Source: Gemmatimonadota bacterium (GTDB taxonomy: Bacteria > Gemmatimonadota > Gemmatimonadetes > Longimicrobiales > Gaopeijiaceae). Taken from it: 64,000 nucleotides of DNA. Shown in pieces: positions 24,964-29,831 of the stretch (positions within the stretch are counted from its first letter, which is position 1; each line of letters begins with the position of its first letter). The stretch spans positions 62,001 to 126,000 of the forward strand of contig SKKN01000025.1 of NCBI GenBank assembly GCA_007121455.1, written 5' to 3'. The position numbers were made by a program, and so were the translations under genes. The notes under the pieces are model-generated. The model did no database searches. It was not told where the DNA came from and worked only from the letters and a program-made list of their open reading frames with translations.

Positions 24964-27162
24964 TCAGCGCAGGAAGAGCATCTCCCGGTACCTGGGGATC
25001 GGCCAGAGGTCGTGCGGCACGAGCGTTTCCAGGCGGTCGACGGCGGCGCGCACCCGGTCCATCGCCGGCACGATGTGCTCCCGCATGTGCACCGCCTTCG
25101 AGCTCACCTCCTCGCCGCCCAGTTCGGCGTTCTGTGCCCTGAGGTGCTCCACGGCATCCTCGAGCTCGTCGGTGAGCTCCGCCACCTCGCGGACGCGACG
25201 CCCGATCGCCGGAAGCTTCACTCCCCCCTCCTTCGCCCTCCGGGCGACGTCCAGCAGCTCGTTCAGGTGCCGGATCGCCGCCGGAAGGACCATCGTCCCG
25301 GCCAGATCCGCCGCGGTCTCACCTTCGATGTTGATCGTGTGGAAGTATCGCTGCAGCGCGATCTCGTAGCGGGACTCCAGCTCCCTCCGGGACAGCACGC
25401 CATACCGTTCGAACAGCTCGGCGTTCTTGTCCTTTACCAGGAAGGGGAGGGCGTCGAGGGCGGTGGGAAGGTTCAGGAGGCCTCTCCGCTCCGCCTCCCG
25501 GGCCCATGCCTCCGAGTACCCGTCGCCGTTGAAGATGACGGGGCGAACTTCGGGTACGACCCTCCCGATCACGGTGCGAACGGCGACCCCCAACTCCTCC
25601 TCCACCTTGAGCTCGGACTCCAGCCGGCCGGAGAGCTCGTCGATCGCCTCGGCCGCGATCGTGTTGAGGACTGTCGCGGGAAAGGAGATGCTCTGGGAGG
25701 CGCCGACCGTCCGAAGCTCGAACTTGTTTCCGGTGAAGGCGAAGGGCGAGGTGCGGTTCCGGTCGCCGGCATGCTTCGGGAGGTCGGGGAGAGCCTTCAC
25801 ACCCAGACCCAGAAGGCCGGAGCCCGCCACCGGCGAACCGCTCGCGCCGCCCACCTCCGCGACCTGATCGAGGATGTCGCTGAGCTGGTCCCCCAGAAAG
25901 ACGGACATGATCGTCGGAGGAGCCTCATGCCCGCCGAGCCGCTGATCGTTCCCCGCGAATGCGACGGAAGCTCTCACGAGGTCCTGGTGCCTCTTCACTC
26001 CCAGGAGGATCGCGGTGCACAGGAAGAGGAAGAGCATGTCTTCCTCCGGGGTGTCTCCGGGCTCGAGGAGGTTGTGACTGCCGTGATAGAAGGACCAGTT
26101 CAGGTGCTTGCCGCTCCCGTTGACCCCCGCGAACGGTTTCTCGTGAAGCAGGCAGGCAAAGCCGAAGCGTCGAGCCACCCTGCGCAGCGTGGACATCATG
26201 AGCTGCTGATGGTCGGCGGCGGTGTTCGCCTCCTCGTGGACGAGCGCCATCTCGAACTGCCCCGGAGCCACCTCGTTGTGACGCGTCTTCACCGGCACGC
26301 CGAGCCGGTAGAGTTCGGTCTCGACCGCCTGCATGTATTCGAGCACCCGATCCGGGATGGCCCCGAAATAGTGATCCTCGAGCTCCTGCCCCTTCGGGGG
26401 GTTCGCGCCGAAGAGGGTGCGTCCGACCGTGGCGAGATCCGGTCGACGATGGTAGAACTCCCGGTCCACCAGAAAGAATTCCTGTTCCGGGCCGAGCGTC
26501 ACGCGAACGCGCTCGGGAGTGACCCCGAAGAGCGTCAGTGCTCTGCGGACCTGCTTCTCGAGCGCATCGATCGACCGGAGGAGCGGAAGCTTTTCGTCCA
26601 GCGCCTCACCCGCCCAGGAAGAGTACGCCGTGGGAATGCAGAGGGTGGCACCTTCGGGTCCGTCGACGATAAAGGCCGCGGAGGTGGGGTCCCAGGTGGT
26701 GTATCCGCGGGCCTCGAAGGTCGTTCTGAGCCCACCGGATGGGAGGGAGGAGGCGGCGGGCTCACCCTGGACGAGGTCATCGCGCGAGAACTCCGTGAGG
26801 CCCTGGCCCGGATTGGAGGGAGTGGGAGTGAGGAAGGAATCGTGCTTCTCGGCGGTCAAGCCGGTGAGCGGCTGGAACCAATGGGTGAAGTGCGTCGCTC
26901 CCCGCTCCTGGGCCCACTCCTTCATCGCGGACGCCACCGGGTCGGTCACCGACGCGTCGAGAGCCGCCCCCGCCTCCATCGTCGCCACGAGGCGCCGGAA
27001 AACGTCTTCCGGAAGCCGGGCACTCATCTCCGAAAGGCCAAACGTGTTCTGGCCGAAGATCTCGGCCACGTCCCGGTACCGGCCGCCTTCGCCGCCCGAC
27101 GGTGGGGGCACCGATTCGGATGAAATTGCCTGTCCGGCGATCGGACGGGAGCGTTCCCTCAT
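24964..27162 (-). CDS. glnN: Glutamine synthetase type III
   Basis: 732 residues, the length expected for the dodecameric GSIII family and far longer than type I. Active-site blocks are present: VTLGPEQEFFLVDREF, RHNEVAPGQFEMALVHEE, the ATP-side AGVNGSGKHLNWSFYHGS and NRTSPFAFTGNKFELRTVG. It condenses ammonia and glutamate using ATP. ATG at 27160-27162 has GGAG seven bases upstream; a TTG four codons earlier is less likely. It is the last gene of the nitrogen cluster, 111 bases after the porin gene, and shares the transcription direction of amt, PII and glnA. GSIII is often an alternative enzyme induced under nitrogen limitation; that timing is not shown here. Confidence 0.94.
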   Translation of the reverse strand: MRERSRPIAGQAISSESVPPPSGGEGGRYRDVAEIFGQNTFGLSEMSARLPEDVFRRLVATMEAGAALDASVTDPVASAMKEWAQERGATHFTHWFQPLTGLTAEKHDSFLTPTPSNPGQGLTEFSRDDLVQGEPAASSLPSGGLRTTFEARGYTTWDPTSAAFIVDGPEGATLCIPTAYSSWAGEALDEKLPLLRSIDALEKQVRRALTLFGVTPERVRVTLGPEQEFFLVDREFYHRRPDLATVGRTLFGANPPKGQELEDHYFGAIPDRVLEYMQAVETELYRLGVPVKTRHNEVAPGQFEMALVHEEANTAADHQQLMMSTLRRVARRFGFACLLHEKPFAGVNGSGKHLNWSFYHGSHNLLEPGDTPEEDMLFLFLCTAILLGVKRHQDLVRASVAFAGNDQRLGGHEAPPTIMSVFLGDQLSDILDQVAEVGGASGSPVAGSGLLGLGVKALPDLPKHAGDRNRTSPFAFTGNKFELRTVGASQSISFPATVLNTIAAEAIDELSGRLESELKVEEELGVAVRTVIGRVVPEVRPVIFNGDGYSEAWAREAERRGLLNLPTALDALPFLVKDKNAELFERYGVLSRRELESRYEIALQRYFHTINIEGETAADLAGTMVLPAAIRHLNELLDVARRAKEGGVKLPAIGRRVREVAELTDELEDAVEHLRAQNAELGGEEVSSKAVHMREHIVPAMDRVRAAVDRLETLVPHDLWPIPRYREMLFLR

Positions 27163-27273
27163 CTGACTCTCCAAGGTGAGCGGCGGGCCCGGAACTCGAC
27201 CGGAGGTGCGCGTTGGCCCCCCCCAAGCTTGCTCCCCCGCGACCGCCGATCAACCGGGCCCGCTATTTTCGTG

Positions 27274-27918
27274 TCAGCCCCCGAGGAGACGGAAGGTTTT
27301 CGTGATCCCGAGAGCGAGGGTGTGATCGGGCACCCCTCGACCTGATAGAGCCCGGTCACTCCAGATCCACGACGCCCTCATGTCGAGGTCCGCCACGATC
27401 GAGAAGTCGTACCCGGCCTCGGCATACCGACCCTCGAAGTCCCCGCCGAAGATACCGCCGGACAGGTAGAGCCCTTCGTGGGACGCCGTGGCTCCGACGA
27501 ACGTGTAGTTTTCCGAGGGGCCTTCGAACGCGTCCCACTGGCCGAACGAGAACTCCACCTCGATGGGCCCTCGTCCCGCGAAGACGTTCGCCTCCCGGTA
27601 GGTGGCGTCGAAGTCGCCGGTATAGAAGTACCCGGTCGCTCCCAGCCCCAAATCGAAGCCAGCTGCCTCGACCGCGTATCCGCCGTAGAGGTCGATCTCC
27701 GCCCCGTCCCCCACGTCGGCGGCCCAGCTCCCGAGATAGAACCCGGCGGTCTCCAGCTCCAATCCGGCGCTGGCGGAGGATGTGGCCTGCGGAATCCCCC
27801 GGTAGTAGTACTCGCTCACCCATCCCACCTCACCGGTGACATCGACCGTCTGGGCGCTGCTCATTGTGGGAAGGAGGACGGAAGCCACGAGGGCCGCTGC
27901 ACAGATCATCTGCTTCAT
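27274..27918 (-). CDS. TorF-type putative outer-membrane porin
   Basis: 214 residues with a Sec signal peptide ending at SSAQT (residues 20-24). The mature chain is an all-beta outer-membrane protein with alternating aromatic strands: VGWVSEYYYRGIPQATSSAS is the opening block of the TorF/TIGR02001 family, followed by DLYGGYAVEAAG, FYTGDFDATYREANVF and the closing LGITKTF strand. Family members usually lie with nitrogen or energy genes and are thought to form a small pore. Here it sits between glnA and the type III glutamine synthetase, 99 bases after glnA, so it may help ammonium or another small nitrogen source cross the outer membrane; this is inference. Confidence 0.85.
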   Translation of the reverse strand: MKQMICAAALVASVLLPTMSSAQTVDVTGEVGWVSEYYYRGIPQATSSASAGLELETAGFYLGSWAADVGDGAEIDLYGGYAVEAAGFDLGLGATGYFYTGDFDATYREANVFAGRGPIEVEFSFGQWDAFEGPSENYTFVGATASHEGLYLSGGIFGGDFEGRYAEAGYDFSIVADLDMRASWIWSDRALSGRGVPDHTLALGITKTFRLLGG

Positions 27919-27961
27919 CGTGTGGTTCTCCTGGGCGGGGTCGCAACCCCGAATGGGTAGA

Positions 27962-28000
27962 GGGCCGCGCCCCGGCGAGCGTGCTGCCGAAGCGCGGCCC
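27962..28000 (-). terminator. Long hairpin between glnA and the porin gene
   Basis: GGGCCGCGC (27962-27970) pairs with GCGCGGCCC (27992-28000). Inside, CGGC pairs with GCCG, giving about 13 pairs around a nine-base loop. It starts 18 bases after the glnA stop on the minus strand. No T-run follows, so it may act as a partial terminator or an RNA-stabilising element that lowers expression of the porin and type III enzyme relative to glnA. Confidence 0.5.
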
Positions 28001-28017
28001 GAAGATCGAGTTCCAGG

Positions 28018-29430
28018 TCAGCTGTCGTAGTAGAGGAAGAACTCGTGGGGGTGCGGCCGGAGCCGAAGCGGAAGCACTTCGTTCTCCATCTTGTATTCGA
28101 TCCAGGTCTCGATCAGGTCGTCCGTGAACACATCGCCTTTCGTGAGAAAAGCATGATCCTCGTCGAGTGCATCGAGGGCCTCTTCGAGGTCCGTAGGTGT
28201 CTTGGCGGTTTCGTCGAGCTCGACCTGGGTCATCTCGTAGATGTCGCGGTCGAGAGGCTCCCCGGGATCGATCTCGTTCTCGATGCCGTCGAGGACCGCC
28301 ATGAGGATCGCGGAGAACATGAGGTATCCGTTCGAGCTCGGATCCGGGCAGCGGAACTCCAGTCGCTTGGCCTTCGGGCTGTTCACGTACATCGGAATCC
28401 GCACGGATGCGGAGCGATTGCGCTTCGACATCGCGAGGTTCACCGGCGCCTCGTAGCCGGGCACGAGCCTCCGGTACGAGTTCGCGGTGGGTGCGGCGAA
28501 GGCGAGGACGGCGCGGGCATGTTTGAGCAAGCCTCCGATCCCGTGGAGCGCCATGTCGCTCAGCCCTGCGTACCCATCGCCGGCGAAGAGCGGCTGCCCG
28601 TCCTTCCAGAGGGACAGGTGCGTGTGCATCCCGCTTCCGTTGTCCTCGAAGATCGGCTTGGGCATGAAGGTGACCGTCTTGCCGTGGTTCTTCGCGACAT
28701 TCTTGATGATGTACTTGAACCACATGAAGTGGTCCGCCATCTGAAGGAGCGGCTCGAATTTCATATCGATCTCGGCCTGACCGCCCGTCCCGACCTCGTG
28801 GTGGTGAGCCTCGACCGTGATCCCGACCTTCTGTAGCTGGAGGGTCATCTCGGTCCGGAGGTTGTGGTAGGTGTCCGTGGGGCTGACGGGGAAGTAGCCC
28901 CCCTTATAGCTCGGCTTGTAGCCGAGGTTCGGCTCCTCGAAGCGGGCCGTGTTCCACTGCCCCTCCACCGAGTCGATCTCGTAGAAGCCACGGTTCTGCG
29001 TCTGCTCGTACCGCACCTGGTCGAAGACGAAAAACTCGGGCTCGGGCCCGATGTAGCACACGTCCGCGATCCCGCTCTCCTTGAGATAGGCATCCGCCTT
29101 CCGGGCCACGTGCCGGGGGTCACGGGAGTAATCCTCGCGCGTCTCCGGATCGACGATGTTCGCGATGATGCTCACCGTGGGTTCGTCGAAGAACGGGTCG
29201 ATCGCGGCGGTGGAGGGGTCCGGCACCGCCACCATGTCGGAGACGTTGATCGCCTGCCATCCCCGCACGGACGAGCCGTCGAAGCCCACACCGTCCACGA
29301 AGGTGCTTTCGTCCCAGGTCTCGATCGGGAAGGTGCAATGCTGCCACGTGCCGAGGAGATCGGTGAACTTGAGGTCCACCATGCTGGCTCCGTTCTCCTT
29401 GGCGTAACGAAAGAAATCATCGGGTGTCAT
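28018..29430 (-). CDS. glnA: Glutamine synthetase type I
   Basis: 470 residues, typical dodecameric GSI. Motifs: [13 protein letters not shown] region, [32 protein letters not shown], the ATP/NH4 block [17 protein letters not shown], the flap/substrate section [11 protein letters not shown], and [16 protein letters not shown]. The adenylylation-site tyrosine is retained as Tyr398 in RDIYEMTQ, corresponding to E. coli Tyr397, so covalent inactivation by a GlnE-type enzyme is possible. ATG at 29428-29430 follows a good AGGAG. It lies 59 bases after the PII gene. The N-terminus [20 protein letters not shown] is complete. Confidence 0.97.
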
Positions 29431-29489: not shown

Positions 29490-29831
29490 TCAGCCCACGG
29501 CGGGGCTTCCCGATTCTCCCGTGCGGATTCGGTAGCACTCGGCCAGCTCGACGACGAAAATCACTCCGTCCCCGAACTCCCCGGTCCGCGCTCCCTCGAT
29601 GATGGCGTCGCGCGTCCGCTCGACGAACTCGTCGTTCACGGCGATCTCGAGGCGGATCTTCTTGAGGAGTTGCACCTCGAACTCTGCGCCCCGGTACGTC
29701 TCCTTGAATCCTCTCTGCTGTCCGCATCCGAGCGCGTTCCCTACCGACATGCGGGCCACTCCTACGTCCGCGAGGGCCTTCTTCACGTAATGGAGCCGCT
29801 CCGGCTGTATGTAAGCGATCACTAATTTCAT
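29490..29831 (-). CDS. glnK: PII nitrogen-regulatory protein with Phe at position 51
   Basis: 113 residues from the ATG at 29829-29831, with GGGAG nine bases upstream. PII proteins sense 2-oxoglutarate and ATP/ADP and bind Amt to block ammonium uptake. The fold is complete: MKLVIAYIQPERL at the start, Gln39 in GCGQQRGF, the T-loop KETYRGAEFEV, GKK-type KIRLEIAVND, and TGEFGDGVIFVVEL with RIRTGE at the end. The uridylylation residue of E. coli GlnB and GlnK, Tyr51, is Phe51 here, while the nearby Tyr46 is kept. It lies 46 bases after amt and before glnA, so it probably acts as GlnK. Confidence 0.96.
   Translation of the reverse strand: MKLVIAYIQPERLHYVKKALADVGVARMSVGNALGCGQQRGFKETYRGAEFEVQLLKKIRLEIAVNDEFVERTRDAIIEGARTGEFGDGVIFVVELAECYRIRTGESGSPAVG

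What the first reader, a model, noticed from the sequence alone, without database searches (positions are those of the whole stretch)
29490..29831. PII protein with Phe51 where uridylylation normally occurs
Counting from the start, the T-loop reads ETYRGAEF with Phe at 51. Tyr46 is retained. Enteric-type control by GlnD uridylylation at Tyr51 is therefore impossible here, although the neighbouring glnA keeps the adenylylation-site Tyr398. Control must rest on effector binding, on modification at another T-loop residue, or not involve GlnD.
Basis: partly seen in the sequence, partly recalled or inferred. Interest (0 to 1): 0.65.

Follow-up and report, generated by a model that had tools for sequence, protein, structure and literature searches.

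The report
Ammonium-channel GlnK without a modification tyrosine
This is an ordinary GlnK-type nitrogen-sensor protein, encoded beside its ammonium channel in an uncultured Gemmatimonadota bacterium; it lacks the tyrosine that E. coli modifies, and the genome has no detectable modifying enzyme, so it is probably controlled by small-molecule binding alone, as in many other bacteria and archaea.

Summary
The minus-strand gene at 29490-29831 encodes a 113-residue PII protein with Phe51 and Tyr46, in the order amtB-PII-glnA. The genome (Gemmatimonadota, 95.6% complete) has one PII and no detectable GlnD or GlnE, so Tyr51 uridylylation and the adenylylation cascade both appear absent.

This is ordinary. 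No canonical PII retrieved from a 150-genome survey of the phylum has Tyr51. In the multi-phylum, AmtB-linked GlnK clade to which this protein belongs, position 51 is mostly Ile, Val, Lys, Met or Phe. Among 50 relatives, all 4 genomes with confirmed GlnD carry a Tyr51 PII, against 4 of 46 without. Published work already shows that E. coli GlnK Tyr51Ala still binds and releases AmtB through effectors, and that PII modification is restricted to a few lineages. GlnA Tyr398 is real but says nothing about adenylylation here.

It may alter nucleotide sensing; untested. Finding: real, explained, low interest.

The parts
29490..29831 (-). PII protein of GlnK type, 113 aa, including stop codon
   Evidence: ORF and translation; Pfam P-II E=1.3e-22; best solved-structure match GlnK1 7p4v E=7.6e-31; AlphaFold model matches GlnK structures with probability 1.00
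29679..29681 (-). codon 51, Phe (Tyr in uridylylated PII proteins)
   Evidence: read from the sequence, ungapped alignment
29694..29696 (-). codon 46, Tyr of the general YRG motif
29562..29564 (-). codon 90, Val where Lys contacts the ATP beta-phosphate in other PII proteins
   Evidence: role of Lys90 from PMC8395244
29878..31191 (-). amtB, ammonium transporter, first gene of the row
   Evidence: Pfam Ammonium_transp E=1.7e-117; beside this PII type in 79/80 named relatives
28018..29430 (-). glnA, type I glutamine synthetase with Tyr398
   Evidence: TIGR00653 645.7 bits over its cut-off; Tyr398
27274..27918 (-). TorF-family putative porin
   Evidence: TIGR02001 over cut-off, PF09694
24964..27174 (-). 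type III glutamine synthetase
   Evidence: PF12437 E=8e-67

Best explanation
The gene encodes GlnK, the PII partner of the ammonium channel encoded directly upstream. Inferred mechanism, from conserved parts and known relatives: when nitrogen is plentiful (low 2-oxoglutarate), the ADP-bound trimer puts its three T-loops, with Arg47, into the AmtB pores and closes them; when nitrogen is short, ATP and 2-oxoglutarate binding reshapes the T-loops and frees the channel. No covalent modification takes part. Tyr51 is free to vary because this lineage has no GlnD, and GlnA is not adenylylated because there is no GlnE. Shown here: sequence, gene order, the single PII, absence of detectable GlnD and GlnE, and the clade-wide lack of Tyr51. 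Inferred: channel blocking, effector control, absence of any other modification.
For: amtB is beside this PII type in 79/80 named relatives from many phyla. Arg47, Gln39, Lys58, Gly87, Asp88, Arg101 and Arg103 are kept. One PII, no PF08335 and no PF03710 in the genome, and no PF08335 in the 8 nearest named relatives' genomes. The GlnE/GlnD-domain hits in the four other Phe51/Val90 genomes are desaturase fusions, not GlnE. No canonical Gemmatimonadota PII retrieved has Tyr51. Confirmed GlnD occurs in 4 of 50 relative genomes and all four have a Tyr51 PII, against 4 of 46 without GlnD. E. coli GlnK Tyr51Ala still binds and leaves AmtB according to nitrogen status (PMC4274968, PMC4285133).
Against: No experiment on any member of this clade was found. 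The genome is 95.6% complete, so a missed gene is possible, although 12 related assemblies agree. A modification of another T-loop residue by an unrelated enzyme cannot be excluded by sequence. Val90 removes a contact to the nucleotide phosphates, so the effector response may differ from the textbook one.
Confidence: 0.85

Rival explanations
1. The T-loop is modified at another residue, for example Tyr46 or Thr45, by an enzyme other than GlnD, so covalent control exists in another form, as Ser49 phosphorylation does in some cyanobacteria.
For: Tyr46 is kept here and in all 8 nearest named relatives. Ser49 phosphorylation of PII in cyanobacteria is a precedent (PMC4285133, PMC6243067).
Against: Tyr46 belongs to the general YRG motif and is equally kept in PII proteins of the Tyr51 kind, so its presence is no sign of modification. 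Ala49 cannot be phosphorylated. No candidate enzyme was found.
Confidence: 0.07
2. The PII acts mainly on the co-encoded GlnA by direct binding, as Methanosarcina mazei GlnK1 does with its GS, rather than mainly on AmtB.
For: glnA follows directly in this genome and in L002 and L005. M. mazei GlnK1 is among the solved relatives (8tge, E=1.4e-26), and its T-loop binds GS directly without modification (PMC10651883).
Against: glnA is next to PII in only a minority of relatives while amtB is there in 79/80. The GlnA here is of the type closest to cyanobacterial and mycobacterial GS (E about 1e-202 to 1e-179), far from the M. mazei enzyme (E about 1e-80). Conservation of the interface was not tested.
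Confidence: 0.05
3. The genome does have GlnD or a second, Tyr51-bearing PII that falls in an assembly gap.
For: Completeness is 95.6%, 80 contigs.
Against: All 12 nearest Phe/Leu51, Val90 relatives lack a recognisable GlnD, and no phylum member surveyed yielded a canonical Tyr51 PII.
Confidence: 0.03

Closest known systems
GlnK of AmtB-GlnK pairs (E. coli GlnK; Methanocaldococcus jannaschii and Methanothermococcus thermolithotrophicus GlnK1)
   Same: fold, length, T-loop with Arg47, most effector-site residues, gene beside amtB
   Different: Phe51 for Tyr51, Gln9 for Lys/Arg9, Val90 for Lys90, one extra C-terminal Gly
GlnD-uridylylated GlnB/GlnK of proteobacteria; GlnD-adenylylated GlnK of actinobacteria
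   Same: PII fold and AmtB link
   Different: no Tyr51, no GlnD, no GlnE in the genome
Multi-phylum CGQQ/AIG-type GlnK clade (Kiritimatiellota, Planctomycetota, Spirochaetota, Lentisphaerota and others)
   Same: Gln9, CGQQ T-loop start, variable residue 51, C-terminal AIG or AVG, amtB next door
   Different: Val90, Tyr100 and Pro110 fixed in the Gemmatimonadota branch

Membership tests
PII signal transduction protein (Pfam PF00543) | P-II domain above the curated cut-off over the full profile | tested here: met
   80.5 bits against cut-off 25, profile 1-102 of 102; AlphaFold model matches PII structures with Foldseek probability 1.00
GlnK of AmtB-GlnK pairs | gene linked to amtB | tested here: met
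   amtB 46 bases upstream on the same strand; 79/80 named relatives
GlnK of AmtB-GlnK pairs | T-loop Arg47 that enters the AmtB pore | tested here: met
   Arg47 present and invariant in the clade alignment
GlnK of AmtB-GlnK pairs | effector-controlled binding to AmtB | not testable with these tools
   needs a binding assay
PII with canonical ATP/2-oxoglutarate site | Lys90 (ATP beta-phosphate contact) and Arg/Lys9 (2-oxoglutarate carboxylate contact) | tested here: not met
   Val90 and Gln9; Gln9 is usual in the wider clade (75/80), Val90 is not
Enteric-type uridylylated PII | Tyr51 | tested here: not met
   Phe51
Enteric-type uridylylated PII | GlnD in the same genome | tested here: not met
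   no PF08335 match; TIGR01693 gives only weak partial hits, the best in a CCA-adding enzyme-like protein
GS adenylylation cascade | GlnE in the same genome | tested here: not met
   no PF03710 match, while the control rings in E. coli, Caulobacter and Corynebacterium
GS adenylylation cascade | target tyrosine in GlnA | tested here: met
   Tyr398; also Tyr in 3ng0, so not diagnostic

The most novel reading that the evidence does not exclude
The Gemmatimonadota clade of AmtB-linked GlnK proteins (Val90, with Gln9 and Phe/Leu51) has dropped not only covalent control but also part of the nucleotide-phosphate contact, so that it reads the ATP/ADP ratio or 2-oxoglutarate differently from characterised GlnK proteins, for instance with weak ATP-ADP discrimination.
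Probability: 0.25. Interest if true: 0.45.

Novelty: new member of a known kind. Interest (0 to 1): 0.2.

Why it matters
It adds a clear natural case, in a poorly studied phylum, to the view that effector binding is the core of PII signalling and covalent modification an add-on that goes with GlnD. Tyr51 tracks GlnD among relatives, so position 51 can serve as a cautious predictor of GlnD control in genomes. The clade-specific loss of Lys90 offers a natural variant for testing how PII proteins tell ATP from ADP.

Tried and rejected
A weak GlnD-profile hit in the own genome (C51:92714) was followed and is a CCA-adding enzyme/poly(A) polymerase-like protein (identified by me from its sequence), not GlnD. 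Weak GlnE hits in Gemmatimonadota sister genomes were followed: those examined are fusions of a fatty-acid desaturase with a GlnE-like region. One relative (G199) was first counted as having GlnD; its protein proved to be GlnE, so the script's Fisher value (5/5 against 3/45, p=2.6e-5) was replaced by 4/4 against 4/46, p = 70/230300 = 3.0e-4, worked out by hand. That test ignores shared ancestry. The extended C-terminus (AVG) was considered as a partner change to Val90 and rejected: the Gly ending is common to the whole clade, including Lys90 members. Promoter and terminator scans gave nothing above chance. Searches for papers on Gemmatimonadota GlnK or PII Lys90 variants found nothing on point beyond PMC8395244.

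Full report
Observation. The gene lies on the minus strand, start codon at 29831 and stop ending at 29490, 113 residues. It aligns without gaps to solved PII proteins (best 7p4v, Methanothermococcus GlnK1, E=7.6e-31), so residue 51 is Phe and residue 46 Tyr beyond doubt. Pfam gives P-II over the whole profile. An AlphaFold model (mean pLDDT 84.7, T-loop region less sure) matches GlnK and GlnZ structures with Foldseek probability 1.00. The neighbouring type I GlnA does carry Tyr398.

Surroundings. Reading the minus strand, the row is amtB (31191-29878), PII (29831-29490), glnA (29430-28018), a TorF-type porin (27918-27274) and a type III glutamine synthetase (27174-24964), with gaps of roughly 50-100 bases. 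The source is a Gemmatimonadota genome: the eight nearest relatives are labelled Gemmatimonadetes, Gemmatimonadales or Longimicrobiales. amtB lies beside this PII type in 79 of 80 named relatives; glnA follows in a minority. This marks the protein as GlnK, the channel partner.

Is there a modifying enzyme? The genome is 3.53 Mb and 95.6% complete. It has one PII, no PF08335 (GlnD domain) and no PF03710 (GlnE); the same two enzyme searches ring in E. coli, Caulobacter and Corynebacterium. The full GlnD profile at a permissive threshold finds only weak partial hits, the best in a protein that reads as a CCA-adding enzyme. None of the eight nearest named relatives has PF08335. In the phylum (150 genomes) PF08335 occurs in 15 and PF03710 in 24. 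GlnE-type proteins were confirmed in G058 and, with one domain unit, in G001; the weak hits examined in the window's own family are fatty-acid desaturase fusions with a GlnE-like region. One PF08335 hit without PF03710 (G037, cut by its contig end) was left unresolved.

Is Phe51 unusual? No. Among 88 PII proteins from the 80 named relative loci, position 51 is mostly Ile, Val, Lys, Met or Phe, and Tyr in 2. No canonical PII retrieved from the Gemmatimonadota survey has Tyr51; the commonest class there has Val51 and even Glu at 39. In 50 relative genomes, all four with a confirmed GlnD (PF08335 plus HD; G177, G183, G196, G198) carry a PII with Tyr51, against 4 of 46 others (p=3.0e-4 by hand, shared ancestry not corrected for). 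Tyr51 thus tracks GlnD. Merrick's review says the same from the literature: glnD is ubiquitous only in proteobacteria and actinobacteria, modification is restricted, and target binding is mainly set by MgATP, ADP and 2-oxoglutarate (PMC4285133). E. coli GlnK Tyr51Ala still associates with and leaves AmtB in response to nitrogen (PMC4274968).

Tyr398 in GlnA. It aligns with the LYEL tyrosine of M. tuberculosis GlnA1, but the closest solved enzyme, 3ng0, also has Tyr there. That 3ng0 is cyanobacterial and that cyanobacterial GS is controlled by inactivating factors rather than adenylylation is my own background knowledge. With no GlnE found, the tyrosine carries no weight.

Position 90 is Val. 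Lys90 makes a salt bridge to the ATP beta-phosphate and also contacts dADP in methanogen GlnK structures (PMC8395244). Lys90 is present in 79 of 80 non-Gemmatimonadota PII proteins of the named set, but Val stands at 90 in all 13 members of the window's clade, which is monophyletic with support 100/99 (few columns, so deeper forks are weak). Arg27, Tyr100 and Pro110 are fixed with it. Gln9 in place of Arg/Lys9, a 2-oxoglutarate contact, is shared with the whole wider clade (75/80). Whether Val90 changes sensing is not shown.

Verdict. A GlnK most likely controlled by effectors alone, in a lineage with no detectable GlnD or GlnE: real, and already explained by the literature. New member of a known kind. 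The Lys90 loss is the one feature that deserves a bench test.

Noticed in passing
window 29562-29564 (codon 90); L002-L009, L113, L117, L118, L120: Lys90 of PII, which contacts the ATP beta-phosphate, is Val in this protein and all 12 close Gemmatimonadota relatives, one supported clade; Lys in 79/80 other named relatives.
   Followed up: partly
L175:2181-4904 (-), L172:756-2981 (+), L181:2106-4595 (-): Gemmatimonadota sister genomes encode a fusion of a fatty-acid desaturase (PF00487, E about 1e-23) with a C-terminal GlnE-like nucleotidyltransferase region (PF03710, E 3e-5 to 1e-12); function unknown.
   Followed up: partly
L086, L093, L102, L139 and other Gemmatimonadota loci: The commonest PII class in the phylum has a T-loop beginning HGGE, with Glu at 39 instead of the Mg/2-oxoglutarate-site Gln39, and mostly Val51.
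   Followed up: no
L178:736-3252 (+), L180:1124-3481 (+): In another class of the phylum (f9) proteins of about 790-840 aa carry a single PF03710 plus PF08335 unit instead of the two expected of GlnE (Pfam run on L178; L180).
   Followed up: no
window 24964-29430 (-): A type I and a type III glutamine synthetase lie in one gene row with a TorF-type porin between them.
   Followed up: no
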